From assembly GCF_009176645.1 (NCBI RefSeq), contig NZ_AP019007.1:372001-436000 (forward strand): a stretch of 64,000 nt of DNA, written 5' to 3'. The translations under genes were made by a program, and so were the position numbers. The notes beneath the pieces are model-generated. The model was not told the DNA's origin, ran no database searches, and saw nothing but the letters and a program-made list of their open reading frames with translations. This DNA comes from Enterobacter oligotrophicus (lineage in GTDB: Bacteria; Pseudomonadota; Gammaproteobacteria; Enterobacterales; Enterobacteriaceae). This document shows positions 27,501 through 39,008 of the stretch, piece after piece. Every line of letters begins with the position of its first letter. Position 1 is the first letter of the stretch.

Positions 27501-28023
27501 CGACTGACGACGCCGGATCGCCGCCCCATAGCAACAGCGTACCCTGGTCTTCCTGCCAGAGCTCCTGTGTGAGTTTTGGGGTAAGCCGTTCAACATCTGC
27601 AATGCTCCCGGTGACGAGCAGGATGCGGATTTTGCTGGACCAGGCGCGTCCGTAAGCATTGCCGAGAGCTAACCGGAGCTCATCAACCAAAGAACGATGA
27701 TTGACCTGAATACCCGAGTCCTCTGTTACTGAAGAGGCAAGATTAAACAATGAATTTAGTTGCTGTCTTTTTTTCCCCCGAAGTGAAGAAAGAAACTGAT
27801 AAGACGGTAACGAGCGAAGCAGGGATTGCCGGGAGCTTAATCGAATAATTTTAAGACAAACCAGAATAATCAACATGGTAATACACCATGCTCCAGCCTG
27901 CATTTTATATCCAGTCAGGTTGAAATAACCCCGCCCTGAATAGATAGCTAACGCAACAACTACCCCCAGGAAACAAATTATTACCGCCGCCCCACCGAGT
28001 CTCATTAACCGACTATTGCTCAC
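24568..28023 (-). CDS. tssM: T6SS inner-membrane channel protein TssM (IcmF)
   Basis: 1151 residues. Membrane helices at about 10-29, 43-60 and 380-402 separate a cytoplasmic GTPase-like domain from a long periplasmic part, the TssM topology. The periplasmic region carries the family segments (WYTRSGLSQNDELLAALFPRYG, the YFADFSGTWLDFLNSL box, and a beta-rich C-terminus that binds TssJ). The cytoplasmic domain reads RILLVTGSIADVERL where many TssM proteins have a Walker A; the GxxxxGK(T/S) loop is missing, so it probably does not bind nucleotide. It forms the membrane complex with TssL and TssJ. It overlaps the upstream unknown gene by 4 bases. Confidence 0.93.
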   Translation of the reverse strand: MSNSRLMRLGGAAVIICFLGVVVALAIYSGRGYFNLTGYKMQAGAWCITMLIILVCLKIIRLSSRQSLLRSLPSYQFLSSLRGKKRQQLNSLFNLASSVTEDSGIQVNHRSLVDELRLALGNAYGRAWSSKIRILLVTGSIADVERLTPKLTQELWQEDQGTLLLWGGDPASSVDIDWLAALRKLRHRPADGMVWVTSALDARAGVEEAGLTSTLSPDAMDMLAHALNKRYEALGWKLPLYAWSLHSHTGEQVGRVTQPIGCLLSAHCQPKALAAQLNGLIPQLTAQGVQQVCTDPQYNFLLALADQLTRKPETVAEPLSVLLNPYRPLPLAGVVFSTPSPGAVRSVKHHWGRDNRWDVIADSVLSLPTGLRPRKPGLSWRQGVGMATSIMMLLWGVSMAASFIANRSLVATTQEQLRQASMEKKPLAVRLHALSELQKTLSQLEYRAQHGVPWYTRSGLSQNDELLAALFPRYGEMALPLLRDAAAKHLQQQLNAFIQLPPDSPLRERMAKTAYDQLKLYLMLSRPEKMNAGWFATTLMRDWPQRAGVTNGVWQGSGLSLLAFYGASLISHPQWRLSPNTGLVSQARTLLIRQLGMRNSESTLYQKLLAQVANQYADMRLADMTGDTEASQLFTTDEVVPGMFTRQAWEEAVQPAIEKVVTERRDEMDWVLSDSKQPASQQTPPEVLKQRLTERYFADFSGTWLDFLNSLRLRRVATLSDAIDQLTLMADVRQSPLVALMNTLSIQGRTGQSGEAISDSLVKSAKNLLGGDKHPVIDQNAGSHGPLDETFGPVLALMDNSQKGTGSTDMSLQTFLTRVTQVRLRLQQVTNATDPQAMTQALAQTVFQGKAVDLTETRDYGSLVAAGLGQEWSGFGQTVFVRPMEQAWQQVLTPAAESLNTQWQSAVVDDWNAAFGGRYPFRDTSSEVSLPLLAKYLNADSGRITHFLQTRLNGVLHREGSHWVPDSINAQGLTFNPSFLQAVDTLSHISDVVFTRGEAGLSFELRPGTADDIMQTTLVIDSQKLTYMNQMPAWKRFSWPADTEAPGAALSWISTQAGTRQYADMSGAWGWIRLLDKASVNAYPGTGSSWSLRWQAPDGRPLNYTLRTEAGEGPLALLKLRDFTLPETIFSISVPATDPRAAEDDYAEETY

Positions 28024-29174
28024 AGCGTCTCCTTCTGAAAGAATGTACTTTTTATCTGCACAAGTAACGTTTGTGCTTTGTGCTGGGAAACAATCAAATT
28101 AACTGCATTTTTACTTTTACCGTTCAGCAGAGCCAATGCTATTGTCATCCATATCCCACTATCGCCTTGCTTACCCAAAATAAATTCAGTGAAATATTGC
28201 GATAATGCCCCTGGGTTTTTCTCATTGCATTTCTGAATGACTTCATTAATAATGCTTTTATCATCTATATTATCAAACCACAAATTTTCTATTCCCATGG
28301 TTCCTTCCTGGTATTTAAGGAAATTTGACAAATCAGAATCAAGCGCAGCACTATCGGTATCCAGAGCCCGATATAAACGCCCCTTTTGTGGAAGGTGTTC
28401 TGTGATATCTGCCGGTGCCAACAACCAGGCACAGGCACCATCACTTGTTAAATGTCGGACATCATCAGAAAGCAGTGGATTACAGACTACAACCAGACGA
28501 CACTTATCACCTGGGTTCTGAAGCCACTCATCAATTTGCACTGTAAAACTGTTAACAAGAAACACCGGGGTTGCTACTGTATCGTCTGGCAGATTAAGAT
28601 TTTTCCAGGCAAGAGAAAATGACCGCCACAGAGAAAGAGATAATACCTCTGGGCCATACAAACTAACTTCAAGTTTTCCTGCTTGAGAAAATGCCAGCAA
28701 TTTATAACGTAAAGATGAAAGTAATTCCTGAAAAACAGCAATATAATCCACTTCGTCAGAAAATTTTATTGCCTTATTTCCGATAATATTGCATTCATCT
28801 CCCCGGCTGAATTTATCAATCTCAACTCCACATGGGAAGGCAGAAGCAAAATCAATAATGGATATGTATTCAGACGCCCACTTACAACATATACTCTCTG
28901 CATTCTTATTGCTAAGCTCTATAATTTCATTATTCTTCACCAGCATCCCCGCACAGAACAATTTCCATCCAGCAGCAAAACCAGATAAAATAAATACGAT
29001 TAAACTCAAACACAAAAAATACAAAAATGCTTTTTTATCATGCGTTAAATAGTAATAAGCGAGGCTTGCAAATATAATAACCAGCAGGCATGAAACAGTC
29101 CTCATGAATAAACGATTTAACTCCAGCGGTGGTACTTTTTCTGGTTCCGTTAAAACAGGCATATTCCATGACAT
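28020..29174 (-). CDS. unknown membrane protein between PAAR and tssM
   Basis: 384 residues from the ATG at 29174 (MSWNMPVLTEPEK), four bases after the PAAR stop; a longer frame upstream overlaps the PAAR gene. Two neighbouring membrane helices (about 25-45 and 48-73: VSCLLVIIFASLAYYYL and FLYFLCLSLIVFILSGF) precede a soluble region of about 310 residues with no recognised domain. It includes SLWRSFSLAWKNLNLPDDTVATP and CRLVVVCNPLLSDDVRHL, which looks like a Rossmann-type strand-helix pattern. It shares a 4-base overlap with tssM, so it is co-expressed with the membrane complex. A T6SS accessory or TssM partner is plausible but unproven. AT content is higher than in the core genes. Confidence 0.7.
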   Translation of the reverse strand: MSWNMPVLTEPEKVPPLELNRLFMRTVSCLLVIIFASLAYYYLTHDKKAFLYFLCLSLIVFILSGFAAGWKLFCAGMLVKNNEIIELSNKNAESICCKWASEYISIIDFASAFPCGVEIDKFSRGDECNIIGNKAIKFSDEVDYIAVFQELLSSLRYKLLAFSQAGKLEVSLYGPEVLSLSLWRSFSLAWKNLNLPDDTVATPVFLVNSFTVQIDEWLQNPGDKCRLVVVCNPLLSDDVRHLTSDGACAWLLAPADITEHLPQKGRLYRALDTDSAALDSDLSNFLKYQEGTMGIENLWFDNIDDKSIINEVIQKCNEKNPGALSQYFTEFILGKQGDSGIWMTIALALLNGKSKNAVNLIVSQHKAQTLLVQIKSTFFQKETL

Positions 29175-29178
29175 AGTT

Positions 29179-29445
29179 TCATCCAATACCAGTGCCCGGA
29201 AGGCTTGAAATAACATAACATCCGCACATGCATTTACACTGGTGGAATGCCACAAGTATCCCATCAGAAATCCACTCGCTGGAACCTTCTATTATTTTAT
29301 TTTTACCATGAAAAGGGATTGGACATATGACATCATCACCCACAAGTGCAGCATTTATTCCATCAATTACCATTGTTGAAGATGCAGAGATCACCATTCC
29401 ACCGCTACTGAGTTTATCATTTAACCTGACAATTCCTGAAAACAC
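29179..29445 (-). CDS. PAAR-domain spike-tip protein
   Basis: 88 residues, GTG start at 29445 with a perfect AAGGAGA eight bases upstream. The PAAR fold pattern is visible: LNDKLSSGGMVISASSTMVIDG, ALVGDDVICPIPFHGKNKIIEGS, and conserved Cys/His (C41, H45, then HQCKCMCGC near 69-76) that bind the tip zinc. PAAR proteins sharpen the VgrG trimer and can dock effectors. It has no toxin extension. It sits downstream of the MIX effector and immunity genes. Confidence 0.88.
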   Translation of the reverse strand: MFSGIVRLNDKLSSGGMVISASSTMVIDGINAALVGDDVICPIPFHGKNKIIEGSSEWISDGILVAFHQCKCMCGCYVISSLPGTGIG

Positions 29446-29594: not shown

Positions 29595-30629
29595 CTAATA
29601 GAAATAAAACTCACGTCCCAGGCCGGTATAAAGAAACGGCGTCTGGTCCCTGAAGGGATTTTCCGGTTTGCCGGTTCGTTTCCACTGCCGTTTCCGTTTT
29701 CGGTTCAGCCGGCTCAGGTTAATATCCGTGACGTTCTTCAGTCCCATCACGGTAAATATCTCTTCAGCCAGATCTTCCTCAGGGAAAGGATGTCGTCGCC
29801 AGACGCTGTACAGTGCTGGACAGATGATGATTGCCCCCCCTGTGGTAGCACAAGGAAGCAGTAGCTCTCCTAATTCCGGCGGGAATAGCTCCTCCATGCC
29901 ATATCTGACTACCCAGCCAATAATGACAGCCAGCAAACCAACCCCATGCATCCCCATCCAGAACCTGGTTCCTCCCCAGCGGGCCTGCCGTTTCCCCCGG
30001 TAACAGCCCGGCGTCATGCTCACGGAACGCTCCTGTGGCTTGACCAGCGCATAGACCAGATATTCATCGCCGACAGGCGCCGCTATAAGCTCCACTTCCT
30101 CACCCACTTTGCAGAAACAGCGACCCAGCCAGCCGGAAAAACGTTTCCCGTTAATCCTTCCGGTGATATGCCAGGAACAGGTCATCAGTCTGTCCCCGTC
30201 CAGCAGCATCCCCTGAGCCGTGGCAGCCGAATCGCTGACCGTCATCACCACAGCGGCCCTTGCCACACGCTCCTTCTGTCGCGCAAAGTATTCATGGGTC
30301 TGCGGATAGGCCTGTGGGTCAAAATAGTGCAGCACCCGCCGCCAGCTAAACTCTTCCAGTACACCGGTCACTTTTATCAGCGGCGCAGGCGGCGGCAGAA
30401 CTGGGTCCGGCGGCGCATCTTCAAGCTGTTCTTCCAGTTTCTGCGCCTGTTTACGAAGCAGGGGTAACTGATCCCGCCTTCCTCTGGTAGATTCGATATC
30501 GGCGATCTTCTCCTGTAATGCCGCCAGTTCACTACGGATTTTCAGGAAGTTATCAGCCGGGTACTTCTCTTTTAATACTGCGCGGGAGGGACGTGGGGCA
30601 TCTGAAAACTTCAGTGCTTCATTCGGCAT
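29595..30629 (-). CDS. putative membrane immunity protein, copy A (tandem duplicate)
   Basis: 344 residues from the ATG at 30629 (MPNEALKFSD). The ATG is chosen because the same CAGGGAAATACA leader precedes the matching start of copy B. Layout: an N-terminal coiled coil (about 30-70, KIRSELAALQEKIADIE), a proline-rich linker, a soluble beta-rich region (85-220), a membrane hairpin (225-277) and a basic C-terminus ending LGREFYFY. It is nearly identical to copy B except in the membrane hairpin. It lies downstream of a membrane-active MIX effector, so protection of the inner membrane from that effector is a reasonable inference. I do not recognise a named family. Confidence 0.65.
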   Translation of the reverse strand: MPNEALKFSDAPRPSRAVLKEKYPADNFLKIRSELAALQEKIADIESTRGRRDQLPLLRKQAQKLEEQLEDAPPDPVLPPPAPLIKVTGVLEEFSWRRVLHYFDPQAYPQTHEYFARQKERVARAAVVMTVSDSAATAQGMLLDGDRLMTCSWHITGRINGKRFSGWLGRCFCKVGEEVELIAAPVGDEYLVYALVKPQERSVSMTPGCYRGKRQARWGGTRFWMGMHGVGLLAVIIGWVVRYGMEELFPPELGELLLPCATTGGAIIICPALYSVWRRHPFPEEDLAEEIFTVMGLKNVTDINLSRLNRKRKRQWKRTGKPENPFRDQTPFLYTGLGREFYFY

Positions 30630-30659
30630 TGTATTTCCCTGAATTAAGGCCTCCATCGG

Positions 30660-31694
30660 CTAGTAGTAATAAAACTCACGTCCCAGGCCGGTATAAAGAA
30701 ATGGCGTCTGGTCCCTGAAGGGATTTTTCGGTTTCCCGGTCCGTTTCCACTGCTGTTTTCGTTTACGGTTCAGTCGGCTCAGGTTTATATCTGTAACGTT
30801 CTTCAGCCCCATCACGGTGAATATCTCTTCTGCCAGATCCTCCTCGGGAAAAGGGTGCCGTCGCCAGACGCTGTAAATGGCAGGACCCACGACAAATAAA
30901 CCACCTGACACAATACCAATAATCAGAGACTCACCAAGATCTGCTGAGATAAAGGCAGCAAGTCCATCAGTTATAAGCCACGTAACAACTACCGACGCAA
31001 GAGCAAAACCATGTATCCCCAACCAGAACCGGGTACCTCCCCAGCGGGCCTGCCGTTTCCCCCGGTAACAGCCCGGCGTCATGCTCACTGAGCGCTCCTG
31101 TGGCTTGACCAGCGCATAGACCAGATATTCATCGCCGACAGGCGCCGCTATAAGCTCCACTTCCTCACCCACTTTGCAGAAACAGCGACCCAGCCAGCCG
31201 GAAAAACGTTTCCCGTTAATCCTTCCGGTGATATGCCAGGAACAGGTCATCAGTCTGTCCCCGTCCAGCAGCATCCCCTGAGCCGTGGCAGCCGAATCGC
31301 TGACCGTCATCACCACAGCGGCCCTTGCCACACGCTCCTTCTGTCGCGCAAAGTATTCATGGGTCTGCGGATAGGCCTGTGGGTCAAAATAGTGCAGCAC
31401 CCGCCGCCAGCTAAACTCTTCCAGTACACCGGTCACTTTTATCAGCGGCGCAGGCGGCGGCAGAACCGGGTCCGGCGGCGCATCTTCAAGCTGTTCTTCC
31501 AGTTTCTGCGCCTGTTTACGAAGCAGGGGTAACTGATCCCGCCTTCCTCTGGTAGATTCGATATCGGCGATCTTCTCCTGTAATGCCGCCAGTTCACTAC
31601 GGATTTTCAGGAAGTTATCAGCCGGGTACTTCTCTTTTAATACTGCGCGGGTGGGGCGTGGGGCATCTGAAAACTTCAGTGCTTCATTCGTCAT
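30660..31694 (-). CDS. putative membrane immunity protein, copy B (tandem duplicate)
   Basis: 344 residues (MTNEALKFSD start), the same length as copy A and 30 bases upstream of it. It lies just after the MIX effector gene (43 bases), as expected for the cognate immunity protein. The membrane hairpin (225-277, from LGIHGFALASVVV to VVGPAIYSVW) shares only about 19 of 53 residues with copy A. The remaining 291 residues differ at about five positions. Same domain layout as copy A. Function is inferred from position and topology only. Confidence 0.65.
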   Translation of the reverse strand: MTNEALKFSDAPRPTRAVLKEKYPADNFLKIRSELAALQEKIADIESTRGRRDQLPLLRKQAQKLEEQLEDAPPDPVLPPPAPLIKVTGVLEEFSWRRVLHYFDPQAYPQTHEYFARQKERVARAAVVMTVSDSAATAQGMLLDGDRLMTCSWHITGRINGKRFSGWLGRCFCKVGEEVELIAAPVGDEYLVYALVKPQERSVSMTPGCYRGKRQARWGGTRFWLGIHGFALASVVVTWLITDGLAAFISADLGESLIIGIVSGGLFVVGPAIYSVWRRHPFPEEDLAEEIFTVMGLKNVTDINLSRLNRKRKQQWKRTGKPKNPFRDQTPFLYTGLGREFYYY

Positions 31695-31737: not shown

Positions 31738-34518
31738 TTACACCATTAAATCGTCTGATTCAATGCGAACAAAAAATGGCCAGAACATTATCTGTCGCGG
31801 CTTTTCTTTTTTATGCTGAGGAGAGGACATCGTTCGCAGACAGGCCATTAAATCATTTCGGCTTTTTTCGATCAAATGGGTTATTTTTTCAGGCTTTAAT
31901 CCGTCACTACTTAAAGTATTTTCATTACCAAATATTCCCTGTTCAAACCAGTTCTGTAAGTCATCACGAGAAAAATACTCCGTGATAATATATTCAGATA
32001 TCATTATAACCAGAGCAAACCACCAGGAAGATAGAACACCAACCCATTCGACCCCAAGTAATAAAAATCTCGGTGCAGCCGCTCTGCCCAACCAAACCCC
32101 TAATGTTCCTTCTTCAGTTGCCCAACCAAAGCGAGAGATTAAGGCACTCATTAATTTCCCTTCGGCATTAGCTAAAGTAGCCACATCATTCAATATTTTC
32201 ATAAAATACAGGCCTTTATATAACCGTTTTTTTTGCACATTCATATCGTCTAATTTATTTCTAAAAGAATATAAATCCAACCCAAAAGATATACCCGCTG
32301 CAATAAGCGAACATCCAGCCCCCACCATTTTCAAATACTGAAAATTATTTCCAGCCTTAACGCCATATTCAAAAACTGGTGTAGCAATATCAGCCACACC
32401 ACCCGTTGTTGCTAACAGTGCGCTTGAAATTTTCGCATAATTGACTGGGTCATCTTTAAAATGTTCTAACTGATTATACAGCTCAACTGCATTAAATATC
32501 AGCACCAGAATTTTAATGCTGGACGCTTTGTAAGCAAACTGATTAGAACCTGTTTCATAATATTTTATGAATGCTGCTTCCATTTCAGCAAACTTTTTAC
32601 TGGCAATACGCAGACTCTCCTGTGCCCTGACTCTTGCCGGGTTGAAAAATCCTACACCATCAAGATAAGCACGCCGCTGACTCACCCAACCGAAGTATTT
32701 CGAGAGAAAGGCACTTGTCTCAGCCTGAGTTTTCCCTGCGGCCAGTGAGAAAAGCGTCCGGTTAATCGCATCACTGGTCGTGTCCAGTACAGCCCCCAGT
32801 CGTGTTGAAGAAAAAACCCTTGAGCCCGCTGTTGCCATATACTGGTCCATTAGATATAAGACCCGTGCGGACAATAACGCATTTTCAGCCGGCGGTTTTG
32901 CAAGTGCAGCAGTCGCTTTTTCAAAACCTTTGAAAATTTTATTTAACTTAGCACCATTAGTTTCGAAAAAATAAAGTAGCCCACCCGGAGACATAGGCTC
33001 CCCGTTGCATTCCCGGCATTTTACTAACAGAGACTCACCCTCAGCCATCAGTTCAGGGTTATTAAAAAAATGAGTTCGCCAGACAAGATTTTTTTCACTG
33101 GTCGTCGTGTACGCATTAATCCACTCATCCAGTAACACTTTACCTGCATCGAAAATATTCAGGCCTGAAATTGCAAAGGCTATTATTTCACGATAATAAA
33201 GATTATCGTCTGGTTCTACAGAATAAAAATCCTGGCTCGTGGAAATAAAGTCTGCATTCTGTAGCCATTTAATCCGAAAATCGATCAGCGTCTGGACCTG
33301 TTCATTAACCTGATCAGTCAGGGTATCGCAACAGTGATTAAATGAGTCCAGTTTTTTCTGATTCAGCATACGCTTATATTTTGCCAGGTCATCTGCTACC
33401 TGGATTCTTTGCATGACGCCCTGCTGTCGTTCCCGGCCTTGCCTTGCATACTCGTCACGGGTCATGATTTCTGATTCGGGAGTATGCTTGCGCCGTTCGT
33501 TCTCAACATACATCTGATATGCCATCTCGATACCGATGGGGTTTTCATCAAATGTGATTTCTAGTTGAGCGGCAACGTTCTGTTCTGCGCTTTTAGCGAT
33601 AATTTGCTCGACACCCTTTATGAGATTCAGAGTGGAAAACTCCAGCGCCCGCTCTTCGCCAAATACCTGTGGCAACGCAAGAATGTCATTTGTCCAGCCG
33701 GTTAGTTCATGAGCAACACCGACCGCATCATGTAAGGCAAAAATGAGCGGAGTGACGGGAGTGCCATCCGCTTTAACTCCCCGGTGCTTCATCTGCTGTA
33801 GCGTGCTGGCAGCAAGTCCAGGAGGTATATTCTTCCAGGGATAGAGCGTCTCTTGTGGCTGCACTTTAGTGACCAGACTAAAACTGTCGTCACCTGTCAT
33901 ATGACTTACCCGAAAATCGCCATGTGTACCCCATGGGAGCAAGGCCGCGGCAGGAAGCCCGCCATTTGCCGCTGGCATATAATCGAGAATGGCTGAGATA
34001 TTCCCCTCCGACGCCTCGCCCGCACAGGGTGCTGATGCAGGCGTCAGCCATTGCGACGCCTTAAGACATTGCATCCTTTTACTCCGCTCATCCTCTTTCT
34101 GGTAACGCTCAAGCGTCGCTGCCGACCAAGGGGATTGCGAAAAGGCTATCCAGATATCATTATCCATAACTTCCACTGGAAGCGTAATAAAGTCTTTGCC
34201 TCCCTGGCTGTAAGTACCCTGCCTGCAGTCTGGTTCAGATTTTTTTATTGCGTTATCAGGAGAAAACTGCTTCCACAAGCTGCCATCATCGCTAATAGAC
34301 CACGCGTCCCATTTAGTCATAAATGGATAATAAATATATAAAAAACCTCGGCGCACTACCCTTAATGCATAATGATAATTGTCATGATCAGGGTATTGTT
34401 TTGCACCAGAAGCGGCCCAACCAGGCAGCGAACCTGACAGATGATCCGGGACAACAGCATATCTGACCGGCAACAGAGCAGGGCCTTGAGTTTTACAATC
34501 ACAATGATGATCTGCCAT
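31738..34518 (-). CDS. MIX-type T6SS effector, predicted membrane-active (VasX-like)
   Basis: 926 residues. The N-terminus (CDCKTQGPALLPVRYAVVP, then LRVVRRGFLYIYY) carries the MIX marker pattern hRxGhhYhh at 55-63, followed by WDAWSISDDGSLWKQF, as in VasX-like effectors. The middle is helical, with an Arg/Gln-rich coiled coil near 345-420. The C-terminal third has hydrophobic segments (about 715-760, and RFLLLGVEWVGVLSSWWFALVIMISEY near 835-865), so a pore-forming or depolarising action is likely. A DUF4123 adaptor gene and vgrG precede it, and two membrane immunity candidates follow, a standard delivery cassette. The toxic domain itself is not a family I can name. Confidence 0.82.
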   Translation of the reverse strand: MADHHCDCKTQGPALLPVRYAVVPDHLSGSLPGWAASGAKQYPDHDNYHYALRVVRRGFLYIYYPFMTKWDAWSISDDGSLWKQFSPDNAIKKSEPDCRQGTYSQGGKDFITLPVEVMDNDIWIAFSQSPWSAATLERYQKEDERSKRMQCLKASQWLTPASAPCAGEASEGNISAILDYMPAANGGLPAAALLPWGTHGDFRVSHMTGDDSFSLVTKVQPQETLYPWKNIPPGLAASTLQQMKHRGVKADGTPVTPLIFALHDAVGVAHELTGWTNDILALPQVFGEERALEFSTLNLIKGVEQIIAKSAEQNVAAQLEITFDENPIGIEMAYQMYVENERRKHTPESEIMTRDEYARQGRERQQGVMQRIQVADDLAKYKRMLNQKKLDSFNHCCDTLTDQVNEQVQTLIDFRIKWLQNADFISTSQDFYSVEPDDNLYYREIIAFAISGLNIFDAGKVLLDEWINAYTTTSEKNLVWRTHFFNNPELMAEGESLLVKCRECNGEPMSPGGLLYFFETNGAKLNKIFKGFEKATAALAKPPAENALLSARVLYLMDQYMATAGSRVFSSTRLGAVLDTTSDAINRTLFSLAAGKTQAETSAFLSKYFGWVSQRRAYLDGVGFFNPARVRAQESLRIASKKFAEMEAAFIKYYETGSNQFAYKASSIKILVLIFNAVELYNQLEHFKDDPVNYAKISSALLATTGGVADIATPVFEYGVKAGNNFQYLKMVGAGCSLIAAGISFGLDLYSFRNKLDDMNVQKKRLYKGLYFMKILNDVATLANAEGKLMSALISRFGWATEEGTLGVWLGRAAAPRFLLLGVEWVGVLSSWWFALVIMISEYIITEYFSRDDLQNWFEQGIFGNENTLSSDGLKPEKITHLIEKSRNDLMACLRTMSSPQHKKEKPRQIMFWPFFVRIESDDLMV

Positions 34519-34562: not shown

Positions 34563-35531
34563 TTAATTGCTACCCGACCGAATATTTTCCCAATCAATCT
34601 CGCTGAGAGAGGCAATCGCACTCAGATAACTTGTATTTTGCTTTGAACGCTGAGATGCCAGGATCCTCGATATATACGGGTGACGATCAAATTCCGGTGA
34701 AACCGTCAGCGCATGCATACCGTAGGCAACAAGATCATCTTTAGACTGGAATGAATAATCTCTTGCACGCCTGAGTGCAGGTAATACCGTTGTCATTATC
34801 GTTAATTCACTAACGCGAGATGAGTCAGTATAAGCAAGGCGATATTCACAGAGGATGGCATTGACTATTGCAATCAGTTTAATATCCTGCCAGTTTTGAG
34901 GGCTTAACGAAACAGTGTGCGACAACCGAATTACTTGCTGCTCAAGTCCGGCTCTTTTGATGATTTGCCCATCCCCATCAATAGAATACCAATTTGTAAC
35001 AGGTCCCAGTAACCGCCGTTGCTGCCAGCTATCCAGTATATTCCAGAGCAATGGTGCTACTGCAGGATCGTAATAACGCAACAGAATATTTTTTCCGTCA
35101 TTATCCTGTAATGCACTTTTACCAAGATGCAGCGCCATTTTTTCTAAAGAAGTATTACTTGCTAACCAGCCACTGATTAATCTTCCCTCACCACGCTTTA
35201 TTTTTTGTGGTTTTATTTCATGAAACGCCAGGTTTAAACTTTCCTCCAGAATTTGAACATCACTACGCAGAGACAAATCAAGAGGGATCAGCCAGGGGAA
35301 AAAATCATCGGTAAGATATTCTGGCGCTACGGGAACTTTTATCACATCCCGGCTTTCCAGAACATCAATAATCTCAGGTTTCATATTACGACGACGAAGT
35401 ATTGCTGCATCAATCATCAATATACAATGTGTATTTAACCGTAAAAATTGCTGAATAAGATACGTTTTAATTAATCGATACTGTTCCCGTCGATCCTGGG
35501 TTGAATAGTTATATGAAATAGCGGTTGTCAT
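34563..35531 (-). CDS. DUF4123 T6SS effector adaptor (Tap/TEC chaperone)
   Basis: 322 residues. The N-terminal half matches DUF4123 (HCILMIDAAILRRRNMKPEI, the WLIPLDLSL segment, then GWLASNTSLEKMALHLGK and LLRYYDPAVAPLLW). These adaptors bind a specific effector and load it on the C-terminal end of its VgrG without being secreted. Location between vgrG (12 bases upstream) and the MIX effector (44 bases downstream) fits exactly. The C-terminal 120 residues vary among relatives. Confidence 0.9.
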   Translation of the reverse strand: MTTAISYNYSTQDRREQYRLIKTYLIQQFLRLNTHCILMIDAAILRRRNMKPEIIDVLESRDVIKVPVAPEYLTDDFFPWLIPLDLSLRSDVQILEESLNLAFHEIKPQKIKRGEGRLISGWLASNTSLEKMALHLGKSALQDNDGKNILLRYYDPAVAPLLWNILDSWQQRRLLGPVTNWYSIDGDGQIIKRAGLEQQVIRLSHTVSLSPQNWQDIKLIAIVNAILCEYRLAYTDSSRVSELTIMTTVLPALRRARDYSFQSKDDLVAYGMHALTVSPEFDRHPYISRILASQRSKQNTSYLSAIASLSEIDWENIRSGSN

Positions 35532-35543
35532 TCGTGGTGTTCC

Positions 35544-37928
35544 TTAATGCATCGTCACATCAGGACTTTGATCTGATCCAGCACTATCCATTGCTGTTGC
35601 ACACGGTTCAGCCAGTTCGATTGTTTTAGTGACGGATGCCGGCCCCATTTTTTGTAAATAACAGCATTTCATTCTGATGTTACCTGTTGTACCAATTTCG
35701 ACATCTCCCTCCTTCAGTCGAATATAGGCCCCTCCACAACTCAGGGTCAGTTCTGTTTTTGCCGTAACTAAAACCTGATTATCTTTACTGGCTACTGTCA
35801 GCGTGTCTTTTGCTAAAAGATCCATTGCATCACCCTGTGCCTGAATTTCAACCTTGCCCTGACTAGCAAAAATTTTAATTCCCATTTTTTGGGCAAACAG
35901 GCTAATCGTCTCTTTCACACCCAGTCGAAATTTTTTCGCTACGCTGATATCTACATCAGCACCTGTAGTCGCAATCAAATTTTCACCTGATGAAAGCTGT
36001 ATACTTGCGGGTGTGATATGAGCAATCCCCGCAGGCGCAGATAAAAGTAAAGCCTGTTGCTTCAATTCGGTGAGTACATCAGCCATCAGTGTCTTCTGAC
36101 GTGCAATATCAGCTAATTCTGCTTTCGCTTTCTCTGCTGCAAAACGTATCCCTTCGGCATCCTGTAACGCTGCCTTGAGACCATCAAGCGCTGCCTGCAT
36201 CTCAAGTTGTAAACCTGTAGCTTCTTCCTGGCGATCGGCGGTAATAAATACCCCTTTCCCGCCACGAATGCTCACCCACTTATCCGTTCGCAGTTCCGCA
36301 CCTTCACCGCGCAGCGCCCTAGATGCGTCCACATTGTGCCCCAGGTTCAGCTGCGTCTTGCCGCCGTACTCAGTACTGAGCTTAATATGCTCCTCGCCGC
36401 GCCTGTCCTCCATCCGCAGCTTGTTGTTCGTCGGTGTGCGGATCACATTACGGGTGCTGTTCTTCTCCGTAACATGGTCAACATGCCGCGAATCATGCAA
36501 CGCATGGGCGATATACGGGCGGTCAGGATCACCTTCATGGAACGCGATCGCCACTTCCGTGCCCTGGATCAGCGGGAAGTGAAACCCATATACATCCCCG
36601 CCGTAGGGTTTAGCGAGACGCACTGGCATACTCTCCTGCCCCTGCGACTTGTCATCCCGATCGGCATCAAACTTCACCCGGTACAGGCCGGATGCATCCT
36701 GCCAAGCGTAGATATCGTTGGTTTTCGCACTGGTGACGCGGGCTGTCATTGTTCCCGTAACTTTTGGACGTGGCAGCGGCTCAGGACGCCAGCACACCGT
36801 TTCACTGTAAGGAACAGCAAGTAAAGTCACCTTCATGGCATCCCTGCGGCTGGCAGTGAACCCGGTTCCGGTAATTAATACCGGGTTCTGCAAGGGAGCA
36901 GGCAACGTCGGCGGCAGACTGTCTGTGATCGTCAGCACCTGAGCGGGTGCCAGCGTGGCGTCCGTGCTGTTGCCGGTAATCAGCGTCTGGTTTGCCAGAA
37001 AACGTTCGTGATCGAGGCGGGCAAAAAAGTTGGCGGTCTCCGCCTCTGGGTCCGTTTTGTCGCCGCGCGCCAGATGACGCAGACGGTAATGATAAGCATC
37101 CCCATAAGTCACCCCTTCACCGTCTCCCAGAGTCATATCTGCAGGCGCAGACTGCAGTATGCTCTGTGCGTCACGGTGGTTATAATCACGGGCAGTCACG
37201 CTCGCTTCAACCACATTGTGCGTAACATTCAGCCCCCACACCGATTCAGTACCGCTGTCGCTCATTCCTGACGGGCTGTTTATGGGCAGGGTTTTTCCAA
37301 ATATCAAAGCACGCTGCGCATCGGCAAAGTGCACCACTTCCGTCTGCGAATCTTGCTGCAGGGTGAACCAGTAAAATATTCCCACCTCCGCCAGCAGGCG
37401 CTGGATAAACGCCAGATCGCTTTCCTGATACTGGTTTATCTGCTCGCGCTTTGGATAACTCTGTTTAAGATTGAATTCATATTCCCAGCCTTTCAGGCCG
37501 TGTTCCGTCAGGATTTGCCCCACCACTTCCGGAACCGATTTGTTGACAAAAAAGCGGTGGGTGCGGAACTGTTTGTCCAGCAGGGAGAGGAAAGGTTTAA
37601 GCGTGATCCGGTATAGCGTTTGGTCAGCAGAGCCGGAGAGACGTCTGAAATCAGTAATAACGCCATGTACTTTTTTCTGCTCAATCAGACTGTCCAGTAA
37701 GCCGGAACACATCGTCAGGTTTGCCGATTTACGCAAGAACCAGGCTACATCAAGATGTTTGTCCGTACTGGTAAAAATAATGTCATACCTGTAAATCTTG
37801 CTTATGCCTTCAATACCGCTGAAATCTTCAACATCCAGAGGTGAGGGACATGTGGGAATATCCAGCCTGTAGCGGTTCAAGCTCTCCCTCCCAGATAAAA
37901 TGCTCTTTAGTGAATCAGTCAGATTCAT
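35544..37928 (-). CDS. vgrG: T6SS spike protein VgrG (TssI)
   Basis: 794 residues. A gp27-like base (1-380, with RYRLDIPTCPSPLDVEDFSG and QYQESDLAFIQRLLAEVGIFYWF), a gp5-like OB fold around the VRLAKPYGGDVYGFHFPLIQGTEVAIAF segment, and a needle followed by a DUF2345-type C-terminal part (about 570-770: repeated VEIQAQGDAMDLLAKDTLTV and related strands). No toxic extension is apparent; the C-terminal tail TAMDSAGSDQSPDVTMH may be the docking point for the adaptor. It overlaps the upstream lipoprotein gene by 14 bases. Confidence 0.95.
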   Translation of the reverse strand: MNLTDSLKSILSGRESLNRYRLDIPTCPSPLDVEDFSGIEGISKIYRYDIIFTSTDKHLDVAWFLRKSANLTMCSGLLDSLIEQKKVHGVITDFRRLSGSADQTLYRITLKPFLSLLDKQFRTHRFFVNKSVPEVVGQILTEHGLKGWEYEFNLKQSYPKREQINQYQESDLAFIQRLLAEVGIFYWFTLQQDSQTEVVHFADAQRALIFGKTLPINSPSGMSDSGTESVWGLNVTHNVVEASVTARDYNHRDAQSILQSAPADMTLGDGEGVTYGDAYHYRLRHLARGDKTDPEAETANFFARLDHERFLANQTLITGNSTDATLAPAQVLTITDSLPPTLPAPLQNPVLITGTGFTASRRDAMKVTLLAVPYSETVCWRPEPLPRPKVTGTMTARVTSAKTNDIYAWQDASGLYRVKFDADRDDKSQGQESMPVRLAKPYGGDVYGFHFPLIQGTEVAIAFHEGDPDRPYIAHALHDSRHVDHVTEKNSTRNVIRTPTNNKLRMEDRRGEEHIKLSTEYGGKTQLNLGHNVDASRALRGEGAELRTDKWVSIRGGKGVFITADRQEEATGLQLEMQAALDGLKAALQDAEGIRFAAEKAKAELADIARQKTLMADVLTELKQQALLLSAPAGIAHITPASIQLSSGENLIATTGADVDISVAKKFRLGVKETISLFAQKMGIKIFASQGKVEIQAQGDAMDLLAKDTLTVASKDNQVLVTAKTELTLSCGGAYIRLKEGDVEIGTTGNIRMKCCYLQKMGPASVTKTIELAEPCATAMDSAGSDQSPDVTMH

Positions 37929-38457
37929 TATTTTTCACTCCATGAAAAGATTTAAAAGGGTGTTTGCAGGAACCCTTACTTTCACTTGGGTCAGGCTGGA
38001 TCTTACTGTTTTCCAACTCGCCGTAGGGTCTCACTGCCTCCGTGTCAGTAAGCGAAATATCAAAAATACACTCGCCAGACACCTCTATCCCGGCAACCAT
38101 TCTGCGTGGCATATCCTTATAGCGCTCAGAGTGCAGGACGTATCTGACAATGAACTGGCCTTTATCAGGAAAATGATGGAATGAAGGTGAGATACATAGC
38201 TGGCCGTTTACGACACGAAGTGCGGGAGCAAATGTAATTTGTCGCTCCCTGAAGCGGGTTCCTCTTGGATCGATGGAAATACTGACTGGCTGGTAGTCCT
38301 CAGGCTCCGGGATGCTGAAACACACGTTGTCGCCTCTCGTGCTGACCAATGCTATTTCTTCAGGCCGAAGGGAATCACCGTGTCCGGGGCATCCGGACAG
38401 TAGCGTCAAGCTGAGTAAAAAAGCACACCGGGAGCAAAAGGTTATTTTTTTCACCAT
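37915..38457 (-). CDS. periplasmic lipoprotein, probable immunity to the metallopeptidase effector
   Basis: 180 residues. The signal peptide ends in the lipobox LLSGC with the lipidated Cys at 23. The mature part is beta-rich (SISIDPRGTRFRERQITFAP and RYVLHSERYKDMPRRMVAGIEVSGECIFDISL). It overlaps the effector gene by 7 bases and vgrG by 14, so all three are translated together. A lipoprotein encoded directly after a candidate toxin inside a T6SS cluster is the usual form of a periplasmic immunity protein. The target is inferred from position. Confidence 0.7.
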   Translation of the reverse strand: MVKKITFCSRCAFLLSLTLLSGCPGHGDSLRPEEIALVSTRGDNVCFSIPEPEDYQPVSISIDPRGTRFRERQITFAPALRVVNGQLCISPSFHHFPDKGQFIVRYVLHSERYKDMPRRMVAGIEVSGECIFDISLTDTEAVRPYGELENSKIQPDPSESKGSCKHPFKSFHGVKNNESD

Positions 38458-39008
38458 GGGAATCCCCGCAACGTGCTGCTATACAGTTTGCGGATAACAG
38501 GCTCAGAAATATTTCCGTCAAGCGTAATATCACCCGAGTTTCTCATATCGCACCATGTTTCGTATCCTTCCACCTGTAAAGAGAAATGGTCGGCAATAAT
38601 CTGTGCCTGCTGCTCCATGGGATATTCACTTAGTAAACGGCCATCCAGGACATAACGGTAACTTACCGCCCAGCTCACCAGACCCCGTCCGATAACATTC
38701 ATTCCCTTTTCACGTTGCCAGACATGACTCATTTCGTGAATGAAAAGATGTTGCAGAAAAGGCACGGCTGATGCGTAATCATCTCTATACCAGTGGCGAA
38801 AATAAATCTCGCCATTTGGGGTCATCGCCGTCTTTTTGTCCTGCAGTCCAAAGGGAAGGTAACTGTCATAATGGATCCAGACCTCATGGTATGGGATCGT
38901 AAACCTAAAAACCGACTTTGCCAGCGCAATCTCCCCTAAAGTCAGCAACCGCAGTTTACCCTCTTTCTTTCCCTTCTTTTCATTGCCTTTATCATGGATG
39001 GTCATCAC
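38451..39008 (-). CDS. zinc-metallopeptidase T6SS effector candidate
   Basis: 185 residues, no signal peptide. The zinc motif HEMSH is at 91-95 (HExxH), in LFIHEMSHVWQREKGMNVIG. A downstream EQQAQIIADHF (132-142) offers the third ligand (E132 or D140/H141). The region before it (YHEVWIHYDSYLPFG, then MTPNGEIYF) resembles the small metallopeptidase family annotated as vgr-related proteins. It overlaps clpV by 4 bases and the lipoprotein gene by 7. A periplasmic immunity partner suggests it acts in the periplasm, on peptidoglycan or an envelope protein. The substrate cannot be read from sequence. Confidence 0.75.
   Translation of the reverse strand: MMTIHDKGNEKKGKKEGKLRLLTLGEIALAKSVFRFTIPYHEVWIHYDSYLPFGLQDKKTAMTPNGEIYFRHWYRDDYASAVPFLQHLFIHEMSHVWQREKGMNVIGRGLVSWAVSYRYVLDGRLLSEYPMEQQAQIIADHFSLQVEGYETWCDMRNSGDITLDGNISEPVIRKLYSSTLRGFPW

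What the first reader, a model, noticed from the sequence alone, without database searches (positions are those of the whole stretch)
29595..31694. Tandem immunity candidates that differ only in the membrane hairpin
Two 344-residue genes repeat with a 1065-base period. Outside residues 225-277 they differ at about five positions; inside, only about 19 of 53 residues agree. This is what one expects if the hairpin decides which toxin is neutralised and a second allele was pasted into a duplicated frame, giving immunity to a foreign effector variant.
Basis: partly seen in the sequence, partly recalled or inferred. Interest (0 to 1): 0.75.

Follow-up and report, generated by a model that had tools for sequence, protein, structure and literature searches.

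The report
Paired antitoxin genes with exchanged hairpins
Next to a bacterial weapon gene for a membrane-piercing toxin sit two almost identical protection genes that differ in one membrane-spanning hairpin, and the same pattern recurs in many relatives, suggesting that this hairpin decides which rival toxin variant a cell can survive.

Summary
They follow a type VI effector of the pore-forming BTH_I2691/VasX family (NF041559) and belong to NF041560. At DNA level they are mosaics: codons 16-200 have one silent change; the hairpin and 3' end come from two old alleles. The two hairpins' nearest relatives lie in different other lineages. The pattern recurs: the hairpin is the most divergent of three segments in 24 of 33 tandem arrays. 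The toxin has a hotspot at the tip of a predicted transmembrane hairpin (residues 749-768). In several natural pairs a trailing copy carries the hairpin of a relative's lead copy while the toxins differ in their transmembrane region (L056/L057, L097/L101, plasmid/Scandinavium). One counter-example exists (L047/L049), statistical covariation does not single out the hairpin, and protection is untested. The kind of arrangement is known (PefE/PefE2, T7SS EsaG, Vibrio arrays); its membrane-hairpin form in this family is the new part.

The parts
31738..34518 (-). Effector, 926 aa: MIX/VasX_N domain plus pore-forming helical region, BTH_I2691 family
   Evidence: VasX_N 2.9e-28; NF041559 4.6e-168; profile of relatives matches 9r8g chain A (996 aa, VasX N-terminal domain protein) at 1.6e-9 over profile positions 14-65
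32002..32391 (-). Effector transmembrane region (residues 710-839), called T in the report
   Evidence: hydropathy peaks 731-749 and 820-838; region definition used
32215..32274 (-). Effector hypervariable tip (residues 749-768) between predicted helices 733-754 and 761-797
   Evidence: 10% identity to P0089 there against 86% overall; helices from a low-confidence part of the model
30660..31694 (-). Immunity copy A (344 aa), next to the effector
   Evidence: NF041560 2.8e-31; model pLDDT 85.1, pTM 0.82
30861..31031 (-). Hairpin allele of copy A (residues 222-278)
   Evidence: nearest relative Buttiauxella P0008 0.70, against 0.40 to copy B
29595..30629 (-). Immunity copy B (344 aa)
   Evidence: NF041560 5.5e-30; 89% identical to A
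29796..29966 (-). Hairpin allele of copy B (residues 222-278)
   Evidence: nearest relative P0007 0.75, against 0.40 to copy A
31095..31649 (-). Near-identical 5' block of copy A (codons 16-200)
   Evidence: 1 silent difference to B
30030..30584 (-). Near-identical 5' block of copy B (codons 16-200)
   Evidence: 1 silent difference to A
30630..30659 (-). 30-bp spacer A to B, near-repeat of the stretch just before copy A; no room for an effector remnant
   Evidence: direct reading
34563..35531 (-). DUF4123 adaptor/chaperone
   Evidence: PF13503 3.2e-10
35544..37928 (-). VgrG
   Evidence: TIGR01646 6.5e-101
29179..29445 (-). PAAR protein
   Evidence: PF05488 8.7e-20

Best explanation
A and B are two alleles of the membrane immunity protein for the upstream BTH_I2691-family pore-forming type VI effector. 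Each has a helical N-terminal hairpin, a beta domain, a transmembrane helical hairpin and a C-terminal helical part. The transmembrane hairpin is the main allele-specific recognition element and meets the toxin's own transmembrane hairpin, whose tip is also polymorphic, in or at the inner membrane. A, next to the effector, is taken to be the cognate copy; B, set into a recently duplicated or homogenised frame, carries a hairpin allele from another lineage and would protect against rivals with a different toxin variant. Shown: linkage, mosaic DNA, recurrence, hotspots in both partners, natural co-segregation in some cases. Inferred: direct binding, which copy is cognate, protection.
For: Effector family. 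Same gene order as P. putida vgrG3-tap3-tke5-tki5-tsp5, where Tki5 neutralises the helical region of the BTH_I2691 member Tke5 (PMC12909789, passages). Linkage: 40 of 42. Mosaic with p = 1e-9. In 33 arrays mean identity is 0.84 for residues 71-218, 0.46 for the hairpin, 0.71 for the C part; hairpin lowest in 24, below N in 32 (Wilcoxon 4e-7). Hairpins are old alleles, not fast drift: window hairpin pS 0.53 against 0.03 in residues 71-218; in L087 copies 2/4 and 3/8 have identical hairpin DNA in diverged flanks. Toxin hotspot: lowest 20-residue window falls in T in 15 of 29 close pairs, 4.2 expected. L056/L057: toxins 0.93 outside T, 0.74 in T; lead copies N 0.97, hairpin 0.26, C 0.92; L056's second copy has L057's hairpin at 0.89. 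L097/L101: toxins 0.99 outside T, change concentrated in codons 721-841; L097's second copy is nearly identical to L101's only copy. Examined afterwards: L051 has T 0.96 to L097 and hairpin 0.94 to L097 copy 1, but T 0.69 and hairpin 0.09 to L101; L043 has T 1.00 and hairpin 1.00 to L095.
Against: L047/L049: toxins differ in T (0.73 against 0.94) but lead hairpins are 0.98 identical. Over all 61 related pairs hairpin identity does not track T minus rest (rho -0.10, p 0.46); among pairs with rest at least 0.80 it does (rho 0.46, p 0.012, n 29), but N (0.56) and C (0.44) do too; pairs are not independent. In L097/L101/L051 the whole immunity gene goes with T, not the hairpin alone. Reverse mosaics exist. 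Averaged over 720 pairs the toxin's C-terminal tail is more variable than 751-770, and in 14 of 29 close pairs the lowest window lies outside T. The toxin model is below pLDDT 50 over much of T. NCBIfam names the family 'putative T6SS effector'.
Confidence: 0.6

Rival explanations
1. Displacement without hairpin recognition: a new effector 3' end with its whole immunity gene came in and the old immunity gene was kept; specificity is spread over the whole protein and the conserved parts were later homogenised by gene conversion.
For: L097/L101 and L041 fit whole-gene or 3'-module replacement; effector 3' pieces lie between copies in L040, L041, L044 and L050; N and C parts track T as well as the hairpin does; the V. 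cholerae model is in print (PMC5361080, passages).
Against: No room for a remnant in the 30-bp A-B spacer; L056/L057 and plasmid/V105_16 lead copies, Scandinavium H11S7 P0019/P0021 and L090 copies differ mainly in the hairpin.
Confidence: 0.23
2. Relaxed constraint: the hairpin is only an anchor, any hydrophobic sequence serves, and it drifts fast; the second copy adds dose or is redundant.
For: Hydrophobic segments tolerate change (general knowledge); L084 has two identical copies.
Against: In the window the hairpin's silent sites are far more diverged than those of the 5' block (0.53 against 0.03), so the alleles are older than the frame; identical hairpin DNA is found inside diverged flanks (L087); hairpins match across genomes at 0.94-1.00 where T matches at 0.95-1.00 (L051/L097, L043/L095, L042/L096).
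Confidence: 0.1
3. The 344-aa proteins are secreted effectors or effector accessories, as the NCBIfam name says, and not immunity proteins.
For: Name of NF041560; a 360-aa metagenome protein (P0085) joins a VasX_N start to this family's C-terminal part.
Against: No Pfam match above cut-off and no MIX, PAAR or VgrG match; up to 8 copies behind one effector; position, and two predicted transmembrane helices, as expected of immunity to a pore former; Tki5 precedent.
Confidence: 0.07

Closest known systems
Tke5-Tki5 of Pseudomonas putida (K3-T6SS; PMC12909789, passages)
   Same: Effector family BTH_I2691, gene order vgrG-tap-effector-immunity-PAAR, immunity acting on the pore-forming helical region
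   Different: One immunity gene in the gene order given; homology of Tki5 to NF041560 not tested (no sequence at hand)
PefE/PefE2 of Proteus mirabilis (PMC5714391, passages)
   Same: Two immunity alleles in one strain, each specific for a different strain's operon, specificity mapped to a short variable segment by chimeras
   Different: 320 aa with a predicted beta-propeller fold; relation not tested; the segment is not described as a membrane hairpin in the passages seen
Tandem esaG and tipC immunity genes of type VII secretion (PMC9484751, abstract and discussion)
   Same: Tandem paralogues recombining between conserved blocks around variable parts
   Different: Other secretion system; for the membrane immunity family tsaI the authors found little recombination, whereas here a membrane family shows it
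Immunity arrays of Vibrio cholerae T6SS (PMC5361080, passages)
   Same: One effector followed by several immunity genes attributed to earlier effectors
   Different: There duplication was argued against and displacement proposed; the window pair looks duplicated or homogenised
VasX-TsiV2 (PMC9558359, passages)
   Same: Colicin-like type VI toxin of the VasX class with a cognate immunity protein
   Different: Homology of TsiV2 to this family not tested

Membership tests
NF041559 BTH_I2691 effector family (upstream gene) | score above curated cut-off, near full-length profile match | tested here: met
   561 bits against 150, residues 6-892
NF041560 T6SS_Burk_ExIF (copies A and B) | score above curated cut-off 90 bits | tested here: met
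   109 and 104.8 bits
Immunity protein of a BTH_I2691 effector (Tki5-like role) | gene directly after the effector | tested here: met
   43-bp gap in the window; within 100 bp for 40 of 42 full effector genes in loci holding both
Immunity protein of a BTH_I2691 effector (Tki5-like role) | protects against the effector | not testable with these tools
   needs co-expression
Immunity protein of a BTH_I2691 effector (Tki5-like role) | sequence homology to Tki5 | not tested
   Tki5 sequence not fetched
Pore-forming toxin of the VasX type (effector) | MIX/VasX_N domain plus hydrophobic C-terminal helices | tested here: met
Pore-forming toxin of the VasX type (effector) | fold of a solved pore former | tested here: inconclusive
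   no Foldseek match at E 0.001 or better; model weak in this region
Displacement-type immunity array (V. cholerae model) | effector 3' remnants between immunity genes | tested here: not met
   30-bp spacer only in the window; effector pieces are seen in L040, L041, L044, L050
Recombining tandem immunity paralogues (esaG type) | conserved block next to a divergent block, mosaic at silent sites | tested here: met

The most novel reading that the evidence does not exclude
An allele-recognition code inside the membrane: the transmembrane hairpin of the immunity protein reads the polymorphic tip of the toxin's own inserting hairpin, and bacteria keep and shuffle hairpin cassettes in tandem arrays (up to eight behind one toxin) as a repertoire against rivals' variants.
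Probability: 0.4. Interest if true: 0.75.

Novelty: new variant of a known kind. Interest (0 to 1): 0.57.

Why it matters
How immunity to pore-forming type VI toxins is made specific is, as far as I know, open; for Tke5 the passages seen name only the target region (PMC12909789). Here two natural proteins that differ by 39 residues, 34 in one hairpin, together with natural toxin variants that differ most sharply in one loop, make the question testable with single exchanges. If right, immunity arrays can be read as lists of toxin variants met by a lineage, and the occurrence of such an effector-immunity array on a conjugative IncFII plasmid shows a possible route for spread.

Tried and rejected

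Rows dropped: of 60 fetched loci annotated, 19 had no full effector (820 aa or more) or no copy of 250 aa or more, and L094 had no such copy near its effector (its nearest piece is 202 aa); none of these entered, which use 40 loci plus the window and Scandinavium V105_16. L043, L048, L051 and L100 were looked at afterwards; L048 and L100 had no close match in T there, so they test little. The trailing-copy listing left out L074, L075, L076, L079, L080, L088 and L089 by script and showed only matches of 0.75 or more.

Full report
What is there. The window holds a type VI secretion cluster on the minus strand. In transcription order: VgrG (35544-37928), a DUF4123 adaptor (34563-35531), a 926-aa effector (31738-34518), two 344-aa genes A (30660-31694) and B (29595-30629), and a PAAR protein (29179-29445). 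The effector is a strong member of NF041559, the BTH_I2691 family (4.6e-168), with a VasX_N domain (2.9e-28). A and B pass the cut-off of NF041560, which NCBI calls 'putative type VI secretion system effector'; Pfam has no model above cut-off for them.

At DNA level more is seen. Codons 16-200 have one silent difference, and the longest identical run is 374 bases. From codon 201 silent differences rise; in 222-278 pS is 0.53 and pN 0.37; in 279-335 pS is 0.42 but pN 0.02. So A and B carry 3' ends of two old alleles in a recently shared 5' frame. The short spacer before B nearly repeats the stretch before A.

Where the alleles come from. In residues 71-218 A and B are each other's nearest relatives (1.00). 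In the hairpin, A is nearest to Buttiauxella A2-C1_F copies (0.70 and 0.63) and B to the metagenome protein P0007 (0.75), against 0.40 between them. These are relatives of the donor alleles, not the donors.

What A is like. An AlphaFold2 model (pLDDT 85.1, pTM 0.82, 57 sequences) has helices 28-46 and 49-70, a beta domain 85-205 with two helices, two long helices 213-243 and 251-278, and further short helices. The two most hydrophobic stretches of A (231-249, 258-276) and of B (223-241, 256-274) overlap the two long helices.

Linkage. NF041560 was found at E 0.001 in 5 of 61 genomes of the window's genus (3 over the cut-off), 25 of 392 of a family sample (15 over), 31 of 35 of one genus of another family in the order (23 over; 2-3 Mb genomes, Gilliamella-like by size and place, my inference), and 10 of 12 of a genus whose effectors resemble Photorhabdus proteins (9 over). 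In 60 fetched loci, 42 full effector genes lie in loci that also hold a full copy; for 40 of the 42 a copy starts within 100 bp of the effector's end. One effector is followed by up to eight copies (L087). The Enterobacter plasmid pRHB15-C17_2 (conjugative, IncFII) carries a related effector with two full copies, a shortened one and a fragment, between vgrG and PAAR genes.

Recurrence. In 33 arrays with at least two copies (window included), mean identity between copies was 0.84 in residues 71-218, 0.46 in the hairpin and 0.71 in the C part; the hairpin was the lowest of the three in 24 and below the N part in 32. Clear cases (N/hairpin/C): L056 0.94/0.32/0.97, L058 0.86/0.30/1.00, L090 (six copies) 0.95/0.40/0.92, L087 (eight copies) 0.94/0.56/0.90, window 1.00/0.40/0.96. 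Less clear: in L074-L080, L088, L089 and L093 the hairpin is not or hardly lower than the C part, and L084 has two identical copies. In L087 two pairs of copies have identical hairpin DNA inside diverged flanks: hairpins can move as cassettes. The reverse also exists: Buttiauxella P0003/P0008, Rahnella P0002/P0010 and P0005/P0014 share the hairpin (0.90-0.98) but differ in the N-terminal part (0.79-0.82 in 71-218, 0.53-0.58 in 1-70).

The toxin's side. Compared with P0089 (86% identical), the window effector has one sharp hotspot, residues 749-768, at 10% identity; P0090 (85%) has a version similar to the window's (0.76 in 751-775). The hotspot lies at the turn between predicted helices 733-754 and 761-797, in a part of the model with low confidence. 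Other pairs show hotspots in the C-terminal transmembrane region too: P0095/P0096 and P0096/P0097 of the same clade, and L056/L057, L074/L075 and L077/L092 of others. In 29 close pairs the lowest window fell in this region (T) in 15, 4.2 expected; in the other 14 it lay near residues 320-350 (6), near the N-terminus (3), near 213 (3) or near 630 (2). Averaged over 720 pairs, the C-terminal tail 891-920 is more variable than 751-770. The hotspot is real but not alone.

Natural experiments. (1) L056 and L057, two species of one genus: toxins 0.93 outside T, 0.74 in T; lead copies N 0.97, hairpin 0.26, C 0.92; the second copy in L056 has L057's hairpin (0.89). (2) L097 and L101: toxins 0.99 outside T; by 40-codon blocks pS is 0.00-0.12 (0.19 in the first block) but 0.33, 0.72 and 0.42 in codons 721-841, and 0.04 again after that; L097's second copy is nearly identical to L101's only copy (pS 0.01-0.05, pN 0.00-0.01). 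L051, examined afterwards, has L097's T (0.96) and L097's lead hairpin (0.94), not L101's (0.69, 0.09), although the rest of its toxin piece is slightly closer to L101 (0.89 against 0.86); its N part goes the same way (0.98 against 0.79). (3) The plasmid's second copy has the hairpin of Scandinavium V105_16 P0020 (0.89), and the two toxins differ more in T (0.73) than elsewhere (0.84); P0020 and toxin P0096 were paired by organism name and contig length, not by seeing the locus. (4) L105's second copy has L104's lead hairpin (0.79; toxins 0.74 in T, 0.89 elsewhere). (5) L043 and L095 share T (1.00) and hairpin (1.00). In all, a trailing copy unlike its own lead copy (hairpin below 0.5) matched another locus's lead copy at 0.75 or more in 7 of the 26 arrays examined in that listing. 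Of the remaining three of these seven, L104/L099 toxins do not differ more in T than elsewhere (0.71, 0.72), L082/L081 differ slightly more (0.63, 0.69), and L077's match belongs to a different effector type.

Against. L047 and L049 have the same lead hairpin (0.98) but different T (0.73 against 0.94). Over 61 pairs there is no rank correlation of hairpin identity with T minus rest (rho -0.10); among 29 pairs with rest at least 0.80 there is (0.46), and a split by hairpin identity (0.75 or more, n 13; below 0.5, n 9) differs with p = 0.006, but the N and C parts correlate as well. Pairs share genomes, so p-values are only indicative. The claim that the hairpin in particular reads the toxin rests on the cases where mainly the hairpin differs.

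Mechanism. Tki5 neutralises the helical pore-forming region of Tke5 (PMC12909789, passages), so an immunity protein acting on T is expected for this effector family. I propose that the immunity hairpin meets the toxin's inserting hairpin in the inner membrane and blocks pore assembly; allele pairs that fit protect, others do not. A is probably cognate by position. B would be a spare allele against another variant, kept in frame by recombination through the conserved parts.

Known or new. Tandem immunity alleles whose short segment sets specificity for different strains' toxins were shown for PefE/PefE2 (PMC5714391, passages). Recombination between tandem immunity paralogues was shown for EsaG and TipC, while the membrane family TsaI showed little (PMC9484751, abstract and discussion). 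Arrays by displacement are in print for V. cholerae (PMC5361080, passages). A bee-gut type VI paper deals with Rhs toxins in the passages seen (PMC5727410). Searches for BTH_I2691 (9 papers), VasX/TsiV2, Tke5/Tki5, tandem immunity recombination, pore-forming colicin immunity, pore-forming effectors, Gilliamella type VI and orphan immunity (one search was too broad to use) showed in the rows listed no title or abstract start that reports a hypervariable hairpin in this family; most papers were seen as listings only, lists were cut at 10-20 rows, and subscription papers are not held. I rate it a new variant of a known kind.

Noticed in passing
window 37915-39008: A second possible effector-immunity pair: a 185-aa protein with an HEMSH stretch (metalloprotease-like, motif read by eye) followed by a 180-aa putative T6SS immunity lipoprotein (NF045617, 1.3e-24).
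   Followed up: no
window 28020-29264: A 414-aa gene with no family match above cut-off, just after PAAR; a gene of similar size sits just after PAAR on the Enterobacter plasmid.
   Followed up: no
L070 6127-13563 (plasmid CP057783.1): An effector-immunity array of this kind, with T6SS genes, lies on a conjugative IncFII plasmid; the third immunity copy is cut short and a fragment follows before PAAR.
   Followed up: partly
protein P0085 (33,399-base metagenome contig): A 360-aa protein joins a VasX_N start to the C-terminal part of this immunity family, like an in-frame deletion between effector and immunity gene; could be an assembly error.
   Followed up: no
L040, L041, L044, L050: Pieces of effector 3' ends lie between immunity copies, like fossils of displaced effectors.
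   Followed up: partly
G616 genus, L087, L090, L106, L107: Large arrays of the family: up to 21 matches (fragments included) in one genome and eight copies behind one effector.
   Followed up: partly
L077 6818-7828: A trailing copy whose hairpin equals the lead copy of a different effector type's locus (L075), i.e. an orphan from another effector type.
   Followed up: no
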